From Leucogyrophana mollusca (taxonomy: Eukaryota > Basidiomycota > Agaricomycetes > Boletales), in the NCBI GenBank assembly GCA_021014945.1, contig MU266369.1, positions 1-64,000 on the forward strand: DNA of 64,000 nucleotides. The letters are read 5' to 3'. The notes under the pieces are model-generated. The model was not told the DNA's origin and made no database searches. It worked only from the letters and a program-made list of their open reading frames with translations. Both the position numbers and the translations under genes were made by a program. How positions within the stretch are numbered: the stretch's first letter is position 1; every line of letters starts with the position of its first letter. This document shows positions 14,428 through 26,139 of the stretch, in pieces.

Positions 14428-16070
14428 ATGGAGGCCGAAATCATCAACGATGTCTACATCCTCCAGGTGACGAGAATGTCCCAGCGTGAGTTTCTATAAC
14501 TACTCCAGTCGGCGAGGCTTAATATTTGCGCCGCAACCAGTTGCAGCCGCCGTAATCATCATATACGATCATGGTTTGCCCCCTTCCTCCTTTTTCGTCA
14601 CACTGGGTCGCTCAACGGTTCTGTGATCCTGCAGTTCAAAGCATTGACAAAGAGGTACCTGTCCGGATATACTCGCAATAGTGTACACAACCCCACTGAC
14701 TCGCACCTCTGTAAGGTCGCTTTGATATGGGTACGTCACAATTGTGCATCTGAGGCTTCAACCTGTGACACCATGTGAAGAGGCGGCCGGGTTCACTCGT
14801 CTCCATATTGTACTTCGTGGTACGCAACTTTTCGCTCGAAATGCTTCTCACCCCATGCCCAATATAAGCAACCCTCAGAATCGATACGTCGGGGACGCTA
14901 TCATAATGTAAGCTACAGCATCTTCAGCTCAAAGCACCCTTCTGATTCCTTTGTTGCTAGTATCAGCGCTACTTGTATGTCCCTGCGATTTGTATGTGAG
15001 CTCTGGATTAATAGTTCGCAGTATTTCTTAGCACGTCATTTTCTGCCAACGTGAGCATTCGCATTCCCGCTTGTCGTCATTTAACGCCGCCTTTATAGAT
15101 GTAAGTCCGATCAGAAATGCACAGAGAACACTCGCACATAAACTACCATTTTCACAACTATTGTAGCTGTGAGCTCTTTTAATACCCTCCTAGATGCTGC
15201 TGATATAATCCTAATGCTAGGTCATATACTATTTCAATTTCAAGTTTGGGGACCATTTGCGTCCGTCTGGTCTACGCAAGGTCTGTACGCTGGATTAACT
15301 ACTTTACAGGATGATTTAACATCAGAACTCCCCCTTGTCTTCGTTTCTGTAGCCATAATGCAGCTTCGCATCTACGCTATGTACCGGAAGTCTAAAAAGG
15401 TTCTTTTTCTTACAGGCATATGTTTTGCCGCGGAGATAGCAGCTATAGCGGTGGTGCTAGTCATGCACTTTGCTCAGTCGCTTTCGTATACGAACGAGCC
15501 GATCCCGGGATTTCATATGTGCGGCACCTCGAACATCGGCAAAAACTTCACCGCGATCTACATTCCAATTTTCTGCTTCGAATTCCTCCTTTTCACGCTG
15601 GCACTATCGGTTGTTTTCAGAAATATGGCCAGGACGCGGCGCATTCCCGGCATGTGGAGGCTCCATGCGACCATGGAGATGATCGTGAAGTCCAGCACCA
15701 TATACTTCTTCGTGTGAGCTCGCATTTTGGTGTGTAGGACCCTGATGCTGACAAAAACTCTCTACCAGCGAAACTTCTGGGTGTGCCATTGCGACTGGCA
15801 TGTACCTCGGACTTCCTGTGAGTCCCATCATACGCTTGCGAATAATTTGATGAACGACAATTGGTGTAGTCAATCTACATCGAAATAGCAAATGCATTTC
15901 TTGTTGCTACTACGGTTGTCCTTGGGAGCAGGCTCGTTATTAACACGCGAGACTTTTACTCCTCTTCACAAGTAGAGGAACACGAAAGCCACGACTTCAG
16001 GCCCCTGATCCATCCTTCAGGTGGTAATGTGGAAATGTCGGTGTTGAGGGAAGACGATGGGGAAGTTTGA
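14428..16070 (+). CDS. DUF6533-family multi-pass membrane protein, paralogue A
   Basis: Member of the basidiomycete DUF6533 family of seven-helix-like membrane proteins, function unknown. Fourteen exons: 14428-14485, 14541-14573, 14635-14654, 14716-14730, 14781-14819, 14879-14907, 14961-14974, 15022-15050, 15099-15100, 15167-15168, 15221-15280, 15353-15713, 15769-15817 and 15870-16070. They total 912 nt, or 303 residues. The DUF6533 start has MEAEIINDVYILQ, an IIIYDH motif, KEVALIW and NRYVGDA. Later come FQVWGPFASVW and MQLRIYAMY, then hydrophobic helices with a Cys-containing loop. The tail is soluble and acidic. Exons 9 and 10 are each only 2 nt (AT and CT). They are needed to keep frame and to encode the Cys shared by all four paralogues just before the Phe-Gln-rich helix. 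Gene B, 850 nt downstream, has the same structure. Confidence 0.85.
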
Positions 16071-16917
16071 CACGCTTTGAAGTCGCAGGTATTATTCCGG
16101 GGACGTAGTAATCAGACTTTGTTTGGCTGTACATGATTTGCAACCTAGCACTATCAGGATGTGTCACAGCGTTATCTGACTTGCTGACGAGTTCGACCAT
16201 TGATTATGAAAGATCCTCGGGCACACACGCCCTATTCGTTAACTTTTAACTCGGCCTCCATCTTATATTGGCTTCAACGACCTCAGGGGTTCGTACAAGC
16301 TCCTCTAAGCTCTTTCATCATTCAAGACCAACTTGAACCACGCGCAAAGTGTGCACCACTTTACTACCAGCCTAATCCGGGCTTAGGGATGACTTGCATT
16401 GACTCCGAACTGCGTGCCATGGAGATTACAAGTCCGACAATGATCCTTCATATCTCACGATTTGCGCCGATGAGTTTGGGTCATCTTTGCACGAGCGCCT
16501 TCAAGCGAGACCACGACTCACCAGGACTCACCACGATGTTGAAGGAGCTTCCCACGTGGCATACCATATGGTGACTGGCAGACGACATGGGGTACGCGCC
16601 ATGAATCTGGTGTCCCGAGGAAGTCGGCACTATTACGTGAAAACCCTCAATATACACACTCTGGTCCTCCTTCCGAGTATTCAGGCTTCGATCAATTCGA
16701 CCTTTCGGAACAACGTGAGATCGCGATACGATAACTTCGCGTAAAAGTATGCAAAAGTTTGGTTAGGGCAACTCCACATTCTAGATTATACCGGGCCCGC
16801 AACCTTCGATGCGTCCAATAGCCGTTTGTTGTTCGTTACAACCTCGTGCCAACTTGCGAACCACTTGGTGGTGGCGATTTCTGCAGACGCAGCCTGACCG
16901 ACACTTTGTGGTTGTCC
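16071..16917. other. Spacer between DUF6533 paralogues A and B
   Basis: About 850 nt with no supported gene. Short open frames are present on both strands without recognisable motifs. It presumably holds the A terminator and the B promoter. Confidence 0.4.
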
Positions 16918-18588
16918 ATGGAGGCTGAGATCCTTGAGGATGCACGGATTCTTCAGGTCTCAAGGTTGTGTCAGCGTCAGTGAATATTTTTCTTCTCTCC
17001 TCCCCATTATTGATCACCGCCCGACCTGCAACTTTTCTTTAGTTGCAGCTGCAGTTGTCGTCATCTACGATCATGGTTCGTCTTCGTCGCATTCGCATAT
17101 GAAATGAAATAACAGAAGTGTTTCTGCGGATAGTGTTAACGTTCCATGATGAGGTGCGGGTTCTGTTCTGTCGTCTCCATAGCACTACTCATGCATCTCC
17201 TTGGAAGGTTGACTTTATATGGGTACGCCAAGATTACTTGCCGACCTCTCATCTCCCTTCTTACATCGAGTATAAATGCAGAAGCGGCCTAGCTCTCTCG
17301 TGACAATTCTATACTTTTGGGTGAGTGGACATCCCTCTGTCCTGGCGTCGATCGTCAGTTCAAGTTATTCGCAGAATCGATATGTGGGGGACGCCATCAT
17401 CATGTAAGTCAAGTCAGTTGTTAATCTGTCGTACAATCTTTCTTACGAGTCTGTGACAAGCATCATTGCCATATGTAGGTCTCGTCCTTCATTGCCCCGC
17501 GCTTGTCGGGCCCCCTGACAGCGTAAATTTCAGTATTTTGCAGCACTTCGTTTTCTCCCGAGGTGAGTTCCCCAAAGATCATGCTTCGTCGGAGCTCTCC
17601 AACATTGTTCGTTTTAGACGTACGTTTTACTTTCTCCATAAATGGAAGAGACGAAAGGCAGTTAATTCGAGATGACTCTCCTTGATTCAGTTGTGAGGTC
17701 GTCATGCATAATTTCTAATGCAACACTCATCATATGTCTACCAGGCCACATTTTGTTCCAATTTCAAGCGTGGGGACCGTTCGCGTCAGTTTGGGCTACA
17801 CAGGGTGGGTGAGGTTTACTTGCTCTTTCACTAGCTTTGACTTATTCTAGCCTATCATAGCTATTATGCAGCTCCGCATTTATGCCATGTATCAAAAATC
17901 TAAGAAGATACTCGCCGTCACGGCTGTATGTTTCGTGATGGAGATAGCCGCAATATCAGCCGTGTTGGCCACGCATTTTGACCACACACTGTCTTACACC
18001 ACCGAACCTATCCCAGGAGTCCATATGTGTGCCACTTCAGCAATTGGCAAGGCTTTCACGGCCATATACATCCCTATCTTCTCTTTCGAGCTCCTGCTTT
18101 TCGTTCTCGCGATCACGGTCGTCTTCAAGCATCTATCACATACACCACACGTCCCCGGCCTTCGGAGGCTACAAACGACAATGAGGATGCTAGCTCGCTA
18201 CAGCACGATTTACTTCTTCGTGTAAGCTCTCTTTACCTTCTCGAGAAGAACCTTCACCTGAGCTCTGTTACCAGCGAGACAGCCGGCTGTGCCATTGCAA
18301 CTGGAATGTACCTAGGGCTTCCTGTGAGTCGGAGACTCTGATAATACTCTTGTTGGTACTCATGATTGTTGCCAAACGTAGCCCGTTTATATAGAAGTCG
18401 CAAACGCATTTCTGGTACCCATCACGGTCATACTTGGAAGCCGTTTTGTCCTCAATACCCGAAGTTTTTACTCTTCCCCGCAATTCGGAGAAGATGACAG
18501 CACCGCATTGGGATCTATCAGCTTTGCTCAGCATTCAGGGATGGTGGAGATGACTACATTCACTAGAGGTGGTGAGACACAGAGTTGA
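16918..18588 (+). CDS. DUF6533-family multi-pass membrane protein, paralogue B
   Basis: Close tandem paralogue of A. Exons: 16918-16975, 17043-17075, 17134-17153, 17218-17232, 17282-17320, 17375-17403, 17461-17474, 17534-17562, 17618-17619, 17691-17692, 17745-17804, 17861-18221, 18275-18323 and 18382-18588. They total 918 nt, or 305 residues. The first thirteen exon lengths equal those of A exactly, including the two 2-nt exons (AC and TT here); only the tail exon differs (207 against 201 nt). Conserved words are MEAEILEDARILQVSRL, VVVIYDH, DEVDFIW, NRYVGDA, FQAWGPFASVW and MQLRIYAMY. Several membrane helices and a polar C-terminal tail follow. Function is unknown; membrane location is inferred from hydrophobicity. 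Confidence 0.85.
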
Positions 18589-18756
18589 CCCGCCATGTAC
18601 CGCATCTATACGATATCTACAGACAAGGCTGGCGCAGTACATCGAGTAATAGCATTGCGCTCAACGTGGCTTATTCCATAAACAAAAGGTGGTACTCGTC
18701 GTCGTCATATCTTACACGCTTGACTATGACGTCGACGAATAATTTCTAAAATTCGA

Positions 18757-18764
18757 TATATAAG
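18757..18764 (+). promoter_or_regulatory. TATA box candidate
   Basis: TATATAAG lies 47 nt upstream of the ATG of the membrane hydrolase-like gene, inside the short spacer that follows gene B. The spacing fits a compact fungal core promoter. Confidence 0.45.
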
Positions 18765-18811
18765 CCTCTGCCTCCTCTTGAGCTTTTCCTTACCCCGAAA
18801 TACAAACGACA

Positions 18812-19649
18812 ATGTGGATTGCACACTTTGCACCAGGCCTTGTGGCCAAACCGTTTGCGCCTGGCGTTCCTCTTTCACTCCTGGCTCTTGCGGGTGCCAT
18901 CCCCGACGCGACCTTTTTTATATTGAACTTCTTCGGCCTCGAAAGCTTTTCTGTCGATCCAAAATTGATGCGCCGCGGATGCTTCCCCTATGCCACCGAT
19001 TACCCTTTCAGCCATTCCCTTGTCGGGATGGCCGCTCTCGGTGCGTGCATCCACTGTCCGAAAGTCCAGTTGACCTAAAGTGCGGTAAAAGGGCTCGCGC
19101 TGACAGCGGGGTACACGCTGATGACACAGCGGAAAGTAACGCCGAAAGACCAGGCAATATTATTGGCAGTGACACTCAGTCATTTTCTGTTCGAGGTGCC
19201 ATCCCATCGCGAAGGTAGCTGCTCGATCGCCATCGTTTCTACGTGGCTTTCTGACACAGGGGCTCTGTAGATGTGAAGATTACGCCGATGGACTCCACCA
19301 ACCTTGGTGCAGGTCTCTTTGACCGGCCCTTCGTGTTGTTCCTGCTGGAGTCGCTGCTTTTCCTCGGAGGCTTATTTGTATACACGACATTCGCACCTCT
19401 TGCAACAAAGCTAGGTTACAAGCGCGCAGGAAACATGAACCGCCTGTGGGGTATCATTGCGTTCATGATCGTTCAGCAAGCGCATTTCTGCTTTGGGTCG
19501 TGAGTAACCCCGTTTTCTGGAGGCTATGAAGCGGTTTCCTCACGTATTTCTGTAGAGCACCGACAACTAACACAAAATGGATTCACGCACCTGTGTTCCT
19601 TTCCGAGATATTGCTGGATAGCTGGCTGATAGGCAAACTCGAGTCATAG
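18812..19649 (+). CDS. Bacterial-type membrane metal-dependent hydrolase-like protein
   Basis: Four exons (18812-19040, 19092-19214, 19271-19499, 19556-19649) total 675 nt and 224 residues. The protein starts MWIAHFAPGLVAKPFAPGV, followed by a hydrophobic helix with IPDA, then YPFSHSLVGM and LSHFLFEVPSHREDV, then NLGAGLFDRP and two further helices. This order of His/Asp-bearing motifs between four or five membrane segments is what I know from bacterial proteins annotated as membrane-bound metal-dependent hydrolases (YdjM/DUF457-like). In that family the conserved His and Asp residues are presumed metal ligands. Enzymatic activity is not proven for it. The gene has normal fungal introns, so any transfer is not recent. 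Confidence is lower for the function than for the gene. Confidence 0.7.
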
Positions 19650-19955
19650 AGGACTTCGTAGGACCAATAAAAGTGTAGGATGTTCTATCCGCAGTCCATT
19701 GTAGCAGAAAGAGTTTTTAAATGACCCACATGCTTTTCACGATATTGGGACGTAGAATGTCTGACTATCCTATCATTGCAGAGGAGAAACCTCTGGTTCA
19801 GGTCACCACTGAAGCGTTCGGCATTCGCCGGGACCTATCAATCCACCGTGGTCCGTGATCCAAATTCCCATCCATGCTAATTCGGCATGTACTAGAGGTT
19901 CCACGATGAATGTTCCGCAATTGTGGTGTTCGGCTTCTACTTCACCAGTCCTGCG
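19650..19955. other. Spacer, 306 nt
   Basis: Short spacer between two genes on the same strand. It contains an AATAAAA-like signal near 19668, a plausible poly(A) element of the upstream gene. Nothing else is recognised. Confidence 0.35.
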
Positions 19956-21320
19956 ATGTCCAGGAATATTCTGGTAACTGGCGCGACCGGGAAACAAGGA
20001 CGCGCTCTTATTGAAGCCCTCCAACCTCTGAAGACTACAGACGACAACCCAAGTGCTAGGTCCTTTCGCATTCTCGCGCTCACCCGCAAGGCAACGAGTC
20101 CAAGTGCAGAGCAACTTGCGAAGCAAGAGCACGTTCAGGTTGTTGAAGGAGACCTTGACTCCATAGAGTCTGTTCGAAAGATATTCGAGGATGCCAAGAG
20201 TATAGGTGGGATTTGGGGTGTGTACTGTGTGCTTGCATTCCCAGGCCTCGGAGCATGCGCAGACGGAGAGGAACGTCAGGGAAAGGTGAGGTTCTTCCTA
20301 ACCTGACCACGTTTGCTTTGTTCAAAGGTTGCTTGGTCCAGGCATTGGCCGACCTGGCACTCGAGTATGGTGTGTCCGTATACATATACTCGTCTGCAGA
20401 ACGAGGTGGGGAAGCGAACGACGAGCACGAAAAGCTCTCTGGCCGTGCAAAAGTTATGGTTGAGCGACACGTCAAAAGTCTTGGTGAAAAGGGGCTCTCG
20501 TGGACGTGGGTCTTACGGCCAAGTTTTTTTATACTTGGGGTAGCTCTCTAGCCTCCATAACTCGCTAACTGACGATCACGGTATTTGTTGCAGAATAATG
20601 CGCCCCGGGTTCTTTCTCGATAATTATGAAGGATTTATTGGTTCGATCACGGTCGCTGTAATGAGAAAAGGCCTCAAAGCCGACACGAAACTGGGGGTTA
20701 TTGTGCGTAGACATTCTTCGCACGGATGTTCATTAGGGTGACTTGTATGCTCGCTTTCGCACATGCATTAGGCCTCAGATGACATTGGCCGCGTCGCCGC
20801 CGCGGTATTCCAAGTCTGTTTTACCCTTCTGCATACCTGTGTCCTCTCACTCATGAGCGAGTTACGAGCAGGAGCCTGAGAAATACAAGCACCAGGAACT
20901 TGTGGTGATCTCGGACATGCTTACCATGTCCGAGCAAGACGATGCCCACAAGCGAGCCACGGGGAGACCACTTCCAGCTATCCCAGGTATACTTGCCAAG
21001 CTCCTGTTAATGATGAATAAATCAACAAAGGAGTTGTAAGTGTTCATATTCTGGAGATGATGGTCGACTAACAAATTCACATTGTCTTCCTTGCTTTTTT
21101 ATTTTTCAGATGCGAGCACTTTGAGTCTCTGCACACCGCGCGTGTGAGCGGGCAGCACGAGAAGTGCGAGTCCCAAATGCAAAAAGCGCGAGCTGCACAC
21201 CCGGAAATGAAGACCGTTTATGATTGGGCAGTTGCGACGAAGGACAGTAACGCCAAGGAGGCGCAAGGGAATGGGTGGAATCAAGTGTCTATTTGGAAGA
21301 TGGTGACAGGTAAACTGTGA
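19956..21320 (+). CDS. NmrA-like NAD(P)-binding protein
   Basis: Six exons (19956-20285, 20342-20505, 20594-20702, 20772-20813, 20872-21035, 21110-21320) give 1020 nt and 339 residues. The start MSRNILVTGATGKQGRAL carries the dinucleotide-binding Gly motif of atypical short-chain dehydrogenases. Later landmarks are VEGDLDSIESV, YIYSSAERGG, LSWTIMRPGFFLDNY (split by an intron) and DIGRVAAAVF. These are typical of the NmrA-like family, whose members are redox-sensing regulators or isoflavone-reductase-like enzymes. The Tyr-x3-Lys catalytic pair of classical dehydrogenases is not evident, so a sensor role is possible. It is convergent with the next gene, leaving 116 nt between them. Confidence 0.85.
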
Positions 21321-21436
21321 GACTAGGATGCACATTGATAGAAGCCCTTGACCCGAGTACAATAAATGTCAGATACCCATCCCGATGTTCCTGCTGCTAA
21401 TGCCTCATTGTTATGCTACTTGGCTGGGAGCATTGT

Positions 21437-23176
21437 TCAACTTTTCGAAGGCCAGCTATCATCATTGACGCCAAGCGCGTGCAGAGGGATAGCTTCGTCC
21501 ATGTCGTGGTTCCTTGCACCTGGCTGCACGCCACCAACCCACACTCCGTTACGAGCCCTGTGTCCCCGAAGGCTGAGAGCAAGACGAGAGCCAGTTGTTA
21601 CAACGACAAAATCAACGAGTGGAACGGATATTCCTTGGCCGTAGATCGGCTGGTTTTGAGAGGAGGTGAGGATGGTGTTACAAAAGGTGTTACAACTTGG
21701 ACAGCAGGCTGGTCTATACGCACAGAAAGGGCCAGCCAAAGTATGATGAAGATGATCGTTATTGCTAGATTGCTAAGGGAAATTCAATACAGTATCTAGA
21801 ACGCGGGGAGCAAAATCCACGTACATAAGGAAGTAAATCAAGCTGTCTCTAGCTAAGACCCTCATCAGCGAGTTCATCCGGCGCTCGGTACCCCCTAGAC
21901 GTATTACTTCCAGGATATTCTTAGCAGAGATCCGAGCCGCGAGAATAAACAGGAGGAGCTCGAAACAGACGATGGGGACATATGTCATCACCATAAAGTT
22001 CCCTCGAATCCCAGTTGCGACACATAATTGCCCGGTAAAGACTGTGATGCTAGTCACTACCAACACACGATGTAAATCGGGGTTCGTGGCATGAGGAATC
22101 AAGACCCACTGGCGAACGAGCTATGAGGACCGACGTTTAACCACAGAATTACTGCCGTGGTAACAATTTCTGCGAGAAAGCAGACGCCTAGAAAAGCCCC
22201 AACCCGCTTGGACCGGTGGTACATTGCAAAAATACGTGGTTGCATGATACCTTGTTGTCGCAGGTCGGGAAGCTATGCAGGTGAACGAATAGAGTCTTGC
22301 TCACTTTGCACGACCCATACATTAACCAGTGTTCCCCAGGCTTCGAATTCGAGCAACTTGTAGCCTGGCGTAAAATGTAAACCAACTGACACCTTTCAAC
22401 GGACATGACGAGGGGACTTACACCTACGCTGACACTATGAGATGGTCTACGACAATGATGAAATGTGCAAGAACGTACAACTAGTCGTCGGCATACAGTG
22501 AGCAGCAGAAATTTACAAATTCAGTAGATGCCAACTGACCTTGGTAGACAGCGCAGTACTGACGGAAACTGACATTATGACACCACTATCAGAGAACACC
22601 TTGGACGTGGGATTCGTTCCGTACCAATAGTCCCAGCGCTGTAGTATGCCGGGTCAGGTGTGGCAATCATTCATAAGCATGCGACATACATGAGCATCGC
22701 GTTGCCCATGTATCGGTTCTGTGGATGTCATATTACGCAAGATAGATCATAGCCTTTTGCGGGGACGTACCACAAAGTATAGTAGTGTCAAGGGAGAGAC
22801 GGTCCCTATCTGCAGCGAGTGAGCGAAAGAAGATGCCAGGAGGCCAGTGGCTTGTACACACCCATATCAACTCCACCTTGCATAACTGTGCGTAAGTTGT
22901 TTCATGCCAGACGCAAAGAGGATGCCCACCTCTTTTGATAATGTTTGGGCTGGGTATTCGTTAAGGCAAGACAGGCATGTGACAGTAATAATCGGAACGA
23001 ACCGTGATCGTAGAGCACGATAGATAATGCTGCGACTGTAGGTATCAAATTTGTGTCCGCAAAGATGCATCAGTGAATCGACAAAGCCGATGCAAGAGGA
23101 GCGACTAGCCTGAGAAGAAGGAAGTTTGCTGGAGAGCTCCCAGATTGCTTACCGTTGTTGCAGCTTCCGGATCCAT
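21437..23176 (-). CDS. DUF6533-family membrane protein, paralogue C
   Basis: Minus-strand paralogue most similar to D. Landmarks: first exon 23110-23176 (MDPEAATTVSNLGALQQ), second exon 23003-23035 (VAALSIVLYDH), a KEVELIW junction near 22860, and NRYMGNA near 22700. A 46-nt exon follows at 22540-22585, then 2-nt exons at 22479-22480 and 22422-22423. The next exon starts at 22364 with YKLLEFEAWG. The C-terminal exons end WPSKS at 21437. The first intron (23036-23109) appears to use a GC donor, because an in-frame TAG follows at once if it is not removed. An upstream ATG at 23291 was rejected because its product does not match the family start, whereas 23176 aligns with D. Other family members have an intron inside the 46-nt exon. 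Function is unknown. Confidence 0.75.
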
Positions 23177-24418
23177 GGGTGATATGTACAACGCGCGTTG
23201 TAGGTGAAAGAATATAGGGGAGATAACTGAGTCGTAGATCGAATTTTAAGTATGTATCAGCCTTGCCGCATCCGATTGCCGCGTCTTCCATCACGAGAAC
23301 AGCGCCAAAGACATGACAGGATGCAATTTGTGCAACAAATGATATGATGGACCGATGGTTGTTTTGGATGAACAGCGGTCATCCCGGTAACTGATAAGAG
23401 CACCATTAAATTGTAGAAGGTCCTCAACACTTTCATGAAGCGTACGAAGTGTTGCAGGGCCCATAAACTTGAACGGCGCGTACACGGCCCGCGATACACC
23501 AACTTGAAGGGACCGGGGTATGGATAGGCCCTCAGACAACTCGAAGGCAGACTTGAAACACCTATCAACCTGTGATACATCAAGGAACCAAAACGTGTCA
23601 AGCGAGATATGGCCAGATACAACTTGATACGCACTGTGCCAGAATTAGATGCGCTTTGTGGCTGACCAGGACGATCACATGCGTTACCAGTAATCAGATA
23701 AGAACAGTTGGTTAGCATGACGGCCCGGCAGTAACTGGGTAAATTTGAAGATGACAAGTGAGAGAATCATAATAAGAAGTAGCCACCCATAATCAAGAAA
23801 CACGAACACCAAGAGAGCGCATTCACTTGAGTCCACCTAATCGAATAAGCCGACAGATATAGACATTGTTGCCTTATATTGGGCCATCGTGCATCATGCT
23901 TTATGTGATGCTGGGACCAACTAGGTTCCCCACCCGAGCTATGCTTCATCTCCTAGGAAGTTGTTAGGAAGCTGTGCTTACCGCGTCTAATTAAAACGAA
24001 AGCCTTCGAGCGACTCGTGCGCAATTCAATATCTCCGCCACCCCGAACGCCCCTCCCTGAAGAAACCAAGGGAGGAGCTCTTTGCATGCTTGAACAATGA
24101 GTATAACCTTCGAAAAAAAACTGACATCGTAATACGGGTCGCCATGCTTTGGATGTAATCCCTTTAAGTCTTCATGCTGCATGGATGGCTGGGCAGCGTA
24201 AGAGGTATGAGTTCCACGTACAATAGTGCGAGCTACGTACCGAATGGGGGGAGGTCAATGCGGACGGGAAAGGATGGCATGAAGAAAGTTTCCTTAAGGA
24301 AGCGGCCGACAAGTGAACAATTACGCGTAAACAGGGCACTTGGTTGTAGCCCATTCTTGACGAGGCTCGCCTATCAGATGCTAGATATATCTACCTAAGT
24401 GTCGGAGCCGCGTGGGCT
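23177..24418. other. Spacer between DUF6533 paralogues C and D
   Basis: About 1.24 kb. The minus strand at 23.29-23.75 kb is open over a fair distance in two frames, but I cannot build a gene or name a domain. A motif CCAGAAT(T/C)AGA(T/C)GCG near 23640 recurs upstream of paralogue D near 26468, so this may be upstream sequence copied together with the gene. No other feature is supported. Confidence 0.4.
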
Positions 24419-26139
24419 TCATGAAAGCTCGCAGCCTCTGATATCGAGAACATGTAGCGGAATCCCTTCACTGGTCGGACGAATCCCTGTCCCCATCCCC
24501 CCCTTTTCAACCTGATGTCCAGCGCGAGCCCTGCGTGTCCGTAGGCTGAGGACCAGGCGAGAGCCAGTTATGAAAAGGACGGTATCGATGAGGGGGGCGG
24601 GTACGCGCCCGTACACTTCCTAGCTTAGGTGTGAGCACGTATTACGACTGGGCAACGAGCTGTGCCTACAGGGAGGGCCACCCAGAGTGCGATGACGACA
24701 AGCATCAACACAAGATTACTGTTGTACGAGTCAATCGATATTCCATGCTCCAAGAGCGGAAGCCACGTACATAAGGAAGTAGACGAAGCTGTCTCTAGCC
24801 AGAACTCTTGTAAGTGAATTCGCCTGCATCGTACCTCCCAGATGTATCATTTCTGAAACATTCCTGACAGATACACGAGCCACAAGAGCGACCAGGAGAA
24901 ACTCGAAGCAGACAACGGGAACAAAGGTCATCACCATGAAACGATCCCGCATCCCAGTGGAGGCACATATTCGGTTAGCATTGACCACGATGCTCGTTCC
25001 TTCATTTCGGATTCAGCGGCATGCAAATATGTAAGGAAATGGCTCGTGATACTGTAAAGATGAGCTTACCGGTGAATGAACTGTTGGGACCGAGGTTTAG
25101 CCACAGGATCACCACGGTGGCCGCGGCTTCTGCTATGGAGCATAACACCAGTAGAATCCCGACCTTCCTGGACTGGTGATACATTGCAAAAATGCGCAGT
25201 TGCATGATACCTTGTTGTCACGGGGTGGATTTCAAAATGGTTTGTATGAGCACAACTCAACGAACCTTGCACAATCCATACATTTACCAACGTCCCCCAC
25301 GCTTCAAATTCGAGTAAATTATAACCTGACGAAAGGATCAGACGAATCCGACTTCTTCAACAACAAAGTACGAGAGGAAACTTACATCTGCGTTATAATT
25401 GTGAGACGACATTGGGAGCTCACGGGAATGGAAAGAATAAAAGGGATTGAGAACGTACAGCTAAGCTTCGTAATGACCATCAGGAACTTCACATAGCCAG
25501 CAAAACACTATGTACCTGGACAGACATCGCATGGCAGACGGAAACTGGTGCAGCGAGATTGTCAGTAGATATATGCTTGGATCTGTGACTCGTCCCATAC
25601 TGATAGTGCTACCACTACAACACGAGAGGTCAGATGCAATACTTTCGCATTTTAATCTAATATATGACTTACGCAAGGACAGTAATGCCCAGATACCGAT
25701 TCTGTGCATGGTACAAGTCGGTTCGTGCACGGATCATGGTCGTGGGGGCATACCATGATATATAACAGTGAAATGGGGGAGAATGGACCTTTCTGTATTC
25801 GTTGAGCACGGAAAGACTCGTTTGTTGGGGCTGTACACACCCATACTAAGTCCACCTGAACAAGGATTATGAAGCCATTTAATTGCAGATGCGTTACATG
25901 GGCGCACCTCTTTTGCGAAATTTTGAGCTGCACGTATGCATGGATTAGAAAGGCGGGCGAACTAGGAATAACGATAACGAACCGTAGTCGTAGAGTCCGA
26001 CAACCAAGACTGCGACTGTGTATTGGAACAATTAGCAACACAGTCGACGAAAGGAATACGAAGAGAACTGGCCTGAAAAATAGCCTATCTGCTGTAGAGC
26101 TTTCAAGTCGTATAAAATTTCAGAAACCTCAGCATCCAT
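24419..26139 (-). CDS. DUF6533-family membrane protein, paralogue D
   Basis: Minus-strand paralogue of C. Landmarks: exon 1 at 26073-26139 (MDAEVSEILYDLKALQQ), exon 2 at 25983-26015 (VAVLVVGLYDY), then KEVDLVW and NRYLGIT. A 14-nt exon lies at 25601-25614 and a 29-nt exon at 25516-25544, then 2-nt exons at 25459-25460 (CT) and 25386-25387 (AT). The next exon begins at 25325 with YNLLEFEAWG. MQLRIFAMYHQSRK follows near 25200, then several membrane helices and a basic, Gly-rich C-terminal tail ending GCELS. The first intron (26016-26072) starts with GC, as in C. Membrane topology and family are clear; function is not known for any member I am aware of. Confidence 0.75.

What the first reader, a model, noticed from the sequence alone, without database searches (positions are those of the whole stretch)
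15022..25544. Two consecutive 2-nt exons conserved in all four DUF6533 paralogues
In each paralogue a 29-nt block ends in phase 0 and the next long exon begins in phase 1, so something must supply one nucleotide modulo three. In every copy the gap holds exactly two AG|NN|GT units: A at 15099-15100 (AT) and 15167-15168 (CT); B at 17618-17619 (AC) and 17691-17692 (TT); C at 22479-22480 (TT) and 22422-22423 (GT); D at 25459-25460 (CT) and 25386-25387 (AT). Their four bases restore frame and give N-I-C-H, E-T-C-H, K-L-C-Y and Q-L-C-Y, with the Cys conserved before the F-Q/E-F-x-A-W helix. All twelve flanking introns are 48-71 nt, the normal size here. With these exons the full A and B models close at 303 and 305 residues. 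Exons of 2 nt, two in a row, are far below usual microexon sizes, and I know of no description of this in the family. Serial (stwintron-like) excision is an alternative mechanism that could use the same sites.
Basis: partly seen in the sequence, partly recalled or inferred. Interest (0 to 1): 0.9.

Follow-up and report, generated by a model that had tools for sequence, protein, structure and literature searches.

The report
Two consecutive two-letter exons in fungi
In a large family of receptor-like membrane-protein genes of a wood-rotting fungus, four letters that help to code a conserved cysteine appear to stand alone between introns as two exons of two letters each; nearly all public models read here miss them, while apparent transcripts of related fungi carry the amino acids these letters would give.

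Summary
The window is contig C43 of Leucogyrophana mollusca (Boletales). A, B, C and D close as intact models of 303, 305, 314 and 309 residues. It is family-wide: of 33 copies examined in this genome, 32 have two consecutive 2-nt exons at the same place and phase, although introns of 18 representatives are diverged to randomness. An ungapped spliced alignment to other species' proteins, with no exon-length prior, picks 2+2 in 24 of 33 copies; shuffled gaps give it in 18 of 2400. The bases rebuild a Cys codon in 23 of 32; those 23 also have a loop cysteine, the other 9 lack both. Seven intron-free ORFs on transcript-sized contigs from relatives read N/D/E-T-C-R there. Public L. mollusca models mostly miss the pair; three use a donor 4 nt downstream. 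No L. mollusca cDNA, nor DNA of the transcript species, could be read; splicing order is inferred. Exons of 1-2 nt are known; a family-wide tandem pair was not found in the searches made.

The parts
14428..16070 (+). Gene A (DUF6533 membrane protein, 303 aa), exons 58,33,20,15,39,29,14,29,2,2,60,361,49,201 nt
15022..15050 (+). A: 29-nt exon, ends in phase 0
15099..15100 (+). A: first 2-nt exon AT
15167..15168 (+). A: second 2-nt exon CT (T is first base of the Cys codon)
15221..15280 (+). A: 60-nt exon starting inside the Cys codon
16918..18588 (+). Gene B (305 aa), same exon sizes as A except the last (207 nt)
17534..17562 (+). B: 29-nt exon
17618..17619 (+). B: first 2-nt exon AC
17691..17692 (+). 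B: second 2-nt exon TT
17745..17804 (+). B: 60-nt exon
21437..23176 (-). Gene C (314 aa), exons 67,33,20,15,39,29,14,29,2,2,60,141,232,49,213 nt; first intron GC-AG
22540..22568 (-). C: 29-nt exon
22479..22480 (-). C: first 2-nt exon TT
22422..22423 (-). C: second 2-nt exon GT
22305..22364 (-). C: 60-nt exon
24419..26139 (-). Gene D (309 aa), same exon number as C; first intron GC-AG
25516..25544 (-). D: 29-nt exon
25459..25460 (-). D: first 2-nt exon CT
25386..25387 (-). D: second 2-nt exon AT
25266..25325 (-). D: 60-nt exon

Best explanation
The four genes, and 28 more of the 33 copies examined in this genome, contain two consecutive constitutive 2-nt exons between three ordinary short GT-AG introns. 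The four bases are coding: the first three form one codon (I, T, L, V, M, F or W in the Cys-bearing copies) and the fourth is, in those copies, the T of the next codon, TGY (Cys), so that two neighbouring codons are assembled from four exons. Shown here: presence, frame, conservation across the copies and coding content. Inferred: that the mature L. mollusca message includes them; that each intron is recognised as a unit (intron definition; 48-97 nt); and that the three are removed one after another, because a 2-nt exon leaves no room for splicing complexes on both sides at once. After one intron is gone, the NN simply becomes the end of a larger exon with an intact donor behind it. Donors after the 2-nt exons are somewhat closer to GTRAGT than others, perhaps making up for the missing exon context. 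The rebuilt Cys lies at the start of a predicted helix and probably pairs with a Cys in the following loop of a distantly GPCR-like protein; the disulfide is an inference from conservation, joint absence and position, not observed.
For: Sites, frame and closed models. The ungapped aligner, with a profile of 8 segments from other species and no exon-length prior, picks 2,2 in 24 of 33 copies, against 18 of 2400 shuffles; each of 8 further copies has exactly one geometric 2+2 path. With exons under 8 nt forbidden the score is lower in 23 of those 24 and tied in 1, C150. Introns of 18 representatives: median identity 0.532 against 0.531 shuffled, 459 comparisons. Last base of the second microexon is T in 28 of 32; TGY restored in 23 of 32. 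All 23 have a loop Cys; none of the 9 others has one in the loop segment read. Uninterrupted relatives in the same genome: L003 SNDTCH, L011 SIDACR, L017 SDSTCH, L022/L023 DPHKCR (five of 14 rows, chosen by eye) and L007 AETCH. Intron-free ORFs of 320-326 aa on contigs of at most 1.25-2.2 kb (P0003, P0005, P0006, P0008-P0011) read N/D/E-T-C-R, and P0034 (378 aa, 1.4 kb) D-L-C-R. Purifying selection: A-B dN 0.23 with dS saturated, C-D dN/dS 0.25. Matches to GTRAGT positions 3-6 in A-D: mean 3.4 of 4 after 2-nt exons (n=8) against 2.7 (n=40). Model of P0008: Cys84 in the first turn of helix 81-113, Cys161 in the loop before helix 168-199.
Against: No L. mollusca transcript was found. The transcript-like ORFs are from other species whose DNA could not be read, so they show which residues are in the message, not that they come from two 2-nt exons there; six published models (P0014, P0015, P0017, P0020, P0021, P0022) read S-C at the end of what looks like a retained intron, which suggests that in those species the second 2-nt exon is fused to the next exon, while P0007 (N-S-S-R) and P0025 do not fit that. 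Three public L. mollusca models use a +4 donor instead. Nine copies lack the Cys. C293 could not be parsed; C159 carries an in-frame TGA; C150 has no ordinary donor after its 14-nt exon and its aligner score ties with a parse without 2-nt exons. The aligner is ungapped, so it presumes the coding length of the other species' proteins. Branch-site-like YTRAY motifs are no more frequent than in other introns (6 of 12 against 21 of 42). Published models P0040 and P0041 (Galerina, Gymnopilus) lack the first Cys but keep the loop Cys.
Confidence: 0.9

Rival explanations
1. One intron of about 170-190 nt with its donor 4 nt further downstream: the 29-nt exon becomes 33 nt and supplies the one base modulo three; there are no 2-nt exons. 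Several public models use this (K-V-S-Y in C, Q-V-S-Y in E, K-V-S-D in C34).
For: Frame is restored; public L. mollusca models P0042, P0043 and P0049 read this, and the Hygrophoropsis models P0037 (T-V-S) and P0056 (P-V-S) look alike; 14 of 32 copies have GT at +4 and 14 have GC. In C291b the +4 reading also gives a Cys (E-V-C-Q).
Against: A GT at +5/+6 is part of the donor consensus GTRAGT itself. 4 of 32 copies (D, C155b, C80a, C22) have neither GT nor GC there. It does not explain the AG|NN|GT pair in 32 copies. It turns the Cys into Ser in C, E and C34. In the eight copies in which it was the aligner's best parse without short exons (A, B, C7a, C7c, C34, C291b, C155a, C287) it scores lower than 2+2. 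The seven transcript-like ORFs read T-C, not V-S.
Confidence: 0.05
2. Nested (stwintron-type) excision, or recursive excision with zero-length exons, in which the sites are intermediate splice sites but not all four bases are kept.
For: Adjacent AG|NN|GT sites allow intermediate steps; the first microexon is GT in 5 of 32 and the second in 13 of 32, which creates overlapping donors.
Against: Loss of either NN breaks the frame; T as fourth base (28 of 32) and TGY (23 of 32) are conserved; no splice element is interrupted by another intron, which is the definition in the abstracts listed.
Confidence: 0.03
3. The copies are decaying pseudogenes and the exon pairs are chance.
For: C159 has an in-frame stop; two regions (C40, C80b) show no upstream exons in the stretch read.
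Against: A-D are open over 13-14 introns with low dN/dS; a 2+2 parse arises in under 1% of shuffled gaps.
Confidence: 0.02

Closest known systems
Single-nucleotide exon of Fusarium CYP621A (PMC12940212; passages and discussion section seen)
   Same: Fungal ultra-small exon inferred from frame and an intronless relative, missed by annotation, inside a conserved motif
   Different: One exon of 1 nt in an ascomycete P450, with read support; here two consecutive exons of 2 nt in basidiomycete membrane proteins, in 32 paralogues, without reads from the species
1-nt exons of plant APC11 and VPS55 (PMC4674806, PMC8831610; passages seen)
   Same: Ultra-small conserved exon; one-after-another removal proposed; misannotated
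   Different: Single microexon, plants, experimentally confirmed
Adjacent plant microexons of 5 and 12 nt (PMC8831610, PMC11096116; passages seen) and human RPS24 microexons of 3, 18 and 22 bp (PMC11162997; passages seen)
   Same: Microexons in a row
   Different: Longer; the RPS24 ones are alternatively spliced; none is a pair of 2-nt exons
Stwintrons (abstract starts in the listing, e.g. PMC5639578)
   Same: Complex fungal intervening sequences needing several splicing reactions
   Different: Here no splice signal is interrupted and the bases between introns are kept as coding exons
Microexons of Phanerochaete P450 genes (PMC1184071; passages seen)
   Same: Basidiomycete multigene family with small exons and small introns
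   Different: Shortest exon reported there is 6 bp

Membership tests
Microexon (ultra-small, constitutive) | Internal exon far below usual size, bounded by canonical acceptor and donor | tested here: met
   AG before and GT after all 64 units in 32 copies
Microexon (ultra-small, constitutive) | Needed for the reading frame and coding a conserved residue | tested here: met
   Four bases restore the frame in 32 of 32; TGY in 23 of 32
Microexon (ultra-small, constitutive) | Included in mature mRNA | tested here: inconclusive
   Residues present in transcript-like ORFs of other species; no L. mollusca reads
DUF6533 (PF20151) | Match above the Pfam gathering score | tested here: met
   A 50.6 and B 62.8 bits, cut-off 24.1; C and D not scanned
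Stwintron | An internal intron interrupts donor, branch or acceptor of an external intron | tested here: not met
   All three introns have their own uninterrupted GT and AG in 32 of 32; branch sites not mapped
Class A GPCR (resembles, not filed as) | Seven helices with a Cys at the top of helix 3 and a Cys in the next outer loop (recalled definition) | tested here: inconclusive
   Model mean pLDDT 71.9 with eight helical segments; the 50 listed Foldseek matches are nearly all class A GPCRs, TMq 0.35-0.48, best E 5.4e-4; disulfide not tested

The most novel reading that the evidence does not exclude
The tandem 2-nt exons are an old, selectively held feature of a large basidiomycete family of GPCR-like receptors: the cysteine codon that closes an extracellular disulfide is built from separate exons, which forces an ordered three-step splicing of that spot, and use of the donor 4 nt downstream yields an in-frame isoform that usually lacks the cysteine, so that splicing could switch the receptor's disulfide on or off in copies where that donor exists.
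Probability: 0.12. Interest if true: 0.85.

Novelty: new variant of a known kind. Interest (0 to 1): 0.66.

Why it matters
Two 2-nt exons in a row, kept at one site in dozens of diverged paralogues, are a natural test of how the spliceosome handles exons too small for any exon-bound factor, and of whether removal is strictly ordered. They also explain why published models of this family fail at just this point: of 11 retrieved L. mollusca models with sequence on both sides of the site, only P0044 reads there as 2+2 splicing predicts. A gene finder with a minimum exon length will fail on such genes, here a family of membrane proteins related by the DUF6533 domain to SNB1, which is needed for fruiting-body patterning (PMC10949477, title and one passage seen).

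Tried and rejected
Single intron with a shifted donor, nested excision and pseudogene decay: see rivals. Chance: rejected. Recent duplication carrying the sites along: rejected by intron divergence and silent-site saturation; some copies are nevertheless close to each other (C7a/C7c, C291a/C155a, C493/C278), so 32 copies are not 32 independent events. A copy in which one of the three introns is lost: none among the 32 parsed; a possible fused form in other Boletales is only read from published protein models and is left as a lead. Two more regions were looked at and dropped before the count because they show no upstream exons in the stretch read (C40; C80b). Searches list 93 and 83 matches (exons, not genes); I examined 33 copies and the 2 dropped ones, so other copies in this genome remain unread. 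The aligner's profile does not suit the C236-type group; those copies were judged by geometry, with exon ends set by eye. One search's pattern gave 14 rows, of which five fit the family and nine are matches elsewhere in the loci. Branch-site motif count gave nothing. Literature: the word searches, of which I saw listings and some passages, showed no description of two consecutive 2-nt exons; most subscription journals are not held, and Volfovsky et al. 2003, cited in PMC12940212 for 2-5-bp exons, is not held.
Full report
What was checked. The window is contig C43:1-64000 of a 32.3-Mb assembly; public proteins encoded on a contig of the same length (154,809 bases) are from Leucogyrophana mollusca, Boletales. 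A and B close at 303 and 305 residues with identical exon sizes up to the last exon. C and D close at 314 and 309 residues, with a GC donor for their first intron. A and B match PF20151 (DUF6533) at 50.6 and 62.8 bits, cut-off 24.1.

Family-wide test. Searching the genome with the exons from the site downward in A and C gave 93 and 83 exon matches. I examined 33 gene copies from these lists, A-D included; two other regions, C40 and C80b, showed no upstream exons in the stretch read and were dropped; the rest of the lists was not read. An ungapped spliced alignment was run against a profile of eight protein segments from other species, without any prior on exon length and with splice-site tables from A-D that leave out the introns flanking the 2-nt exons. 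It chose two exons of 2 nt before the 60-nt exon in 24 of 33 copies, 23 of them with the full 29, 14, 29, 2, 2 layout. With exons under 8 nt forbidden the score fell in 23 of the 24 and tied in one, C150. Of the other nine copies, mostly a diverged group that the profile fits badly, eight have exactly one geometric 2+2 path between gap ends that I set by eye; C20b and C63, already counted, have two. C293 stayed unresolved. So 32 of 33.

Chance and descent. Shuffling the gap between the 29-nt and 60-nt exons, 100 times for each of the 24 copies, gave the 2+2 parse in 18 of 2400 and any geometrically possible 2+2 path in 46 of 2400. The introns of 18 representative copies are no more alike than shuffled ones (median identity 0.532 against 0.531 in 459 comparisons), although some close pairs of copies exist. 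Silent sites between A and B are saturated while dN is 0.23; C-D dN/dS is 0.25. I conclude that selection has kept the sites.

What the four bases encode. The fourth base is T in 28 of 32 copies, and with GY of the next exon it makes Cys in 23 of 32. Relatives in the same genome that have no introns here carry the equivalent bases in one exon (S-N-D-T-C-H, S-D-S-T-C-H, S-I-D-A-C-R, D-P-H-K-C-R; A-E-T-C-H); I matched these by eye. Copy B reads E-T-C-H. In all 23 Cys-bearing copies a second Cys lies in the loop before the next long helix exon; in none of the nine Cys-less copies is there one in the loop segment read. The nine may be one or few lineages, so this is not nine independent events. 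A model of the relative P0008 (mean pLDDT 71.9) puts the first Cys in the first turn of helix 81-113 and the second in the loop before helix 168-199; nearly all of the 50 listed structural matches are class A GPCRs, at modest TM-scores of 0.35-0.48. SNB1, another DUF6533 protein, is described as a predicted seven-helix plasma-membrane protein (PMC10949477, passage).

Transcripts and annotation. The protein search returned ORFs of 320-326 residues on contigs of at most 1.25-2.2 kb (P0003, P0005, P0006, P0008-P0011). The genes here have 13 introns of about 55 nt, and published Suillus models show introns too, so I take these uninterrupted ORFs as spliced RNA; that the source label 'lgn' means the Logan assemblies of public reads is my own reading (a listing names such a resource). 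All seven read N, D or E, then T-C-R, as inclusion of microexon bases predicts; P0034 reads D-L-C-R. The published Suillus brevipes model P0007 reads N-S-S-R where the otherwise very similar P0008 reads N-T-C-R. Of 11 public L. mollusca models with sequence on both sides of the site, P0001 and P0013 (B and A) are frameshifted across it; P0042, P0043 and P0049 use a donor 4 nt downstream (V-S in place of x-C); P0045, P0048, P0051 and P0058 are otherwise wrong or skip the site; P0046 has the second 2-nt exon only behind retained intron sequence; P0044 reads R-V-C-Y as expected, but its DNA was not among the loci held.

Against the reading. There is no L. mollusca cDNA. The DNA of the transcript species was out of reach, so their exon layout is unknown; six published models from Suillus, Paxillus and Melanogaster read S-C at the end of what looks like a retained intron, hinting that the second 2-nt exon is fused to the next exon there, whereas P0007 and P0025 do not fit. 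In C291b the +4 donor would also give a Cys. Two published models, from Galerina and Gymnopilus, lack the first Cys but keep the second. C159 has an in-frame TGA and C150 an odd donor.

Mechanism. Introns of 48-97 nt with their own donor and acceptor fit intron definition. Simultaneous assembly on both sides of a 2-nt exon is implausible; successive removal, as proposed for the 1-nt exon of APC11 (PMC4674806, passages), is the simplest route. Donors after the 2-nt exons match GTRAGT better than others in A-D (3.4 against 2.7 of 4 positions), and in the 32 copies the means for introns 1, 2 and 3 are 2.4, 2.9 and 3.4. Branch-like motifs are not enriched. The order of removal is not shown.

Place among known things. 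A 1-nt exon in Fusarium P450s (PMC12940212, passages and discussion), 1-nt exons in plants (PMC8831610, passages), adjacent plant microexons of 5 and 12 nt (passages), and the 3-, 18- and 22-bp microexons of RPS24 (PMC11162997, passages) are the nearest. The word searches made (listings and some passages seen) show no pair of consecutive 2-nt exons. I file it as a new variant of a known kind.

Noticed in passing
window 23036-23109 and 26016-26072 (minus strand): First intron of C and D has a GC donor (GCTAGT, GCCAGT) at the same place in both.
   Followed up: partly
G000:C7:91.6 kb (copy C7b) and G000:C150:64.3 kb: C7b uses a GCAAGT donor after the exon with the RY motif; C150 has ATAAGT where the donor after its 14-nt exon is expected.
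   Followed up: no
window 14.4-26.2 kb, all four genes: Each gene also carries exons of 20, 15 and 14 nt, the same sizes in all four.
   Followed up: partly
public proteins P0001, P0013, P0042, P0043, P0045, P0046, P0048, P0049, P0051, P0058: Ten of 11 published L. mollusca models with sequence on both sides of the site do not read there as 2+2 splicing predicts.
   Followed up: yes
model of P0008: DUF6533 proteins look distantly GPCR-like: eight helical segments, class A GPCRs as nearly all listed structural matches, at modest scores.
   Followed up: partly
G000:C43:146-152 kb: Three more C/D-type copies lie on the same contig as the window, outside it.
   Followed up: yes
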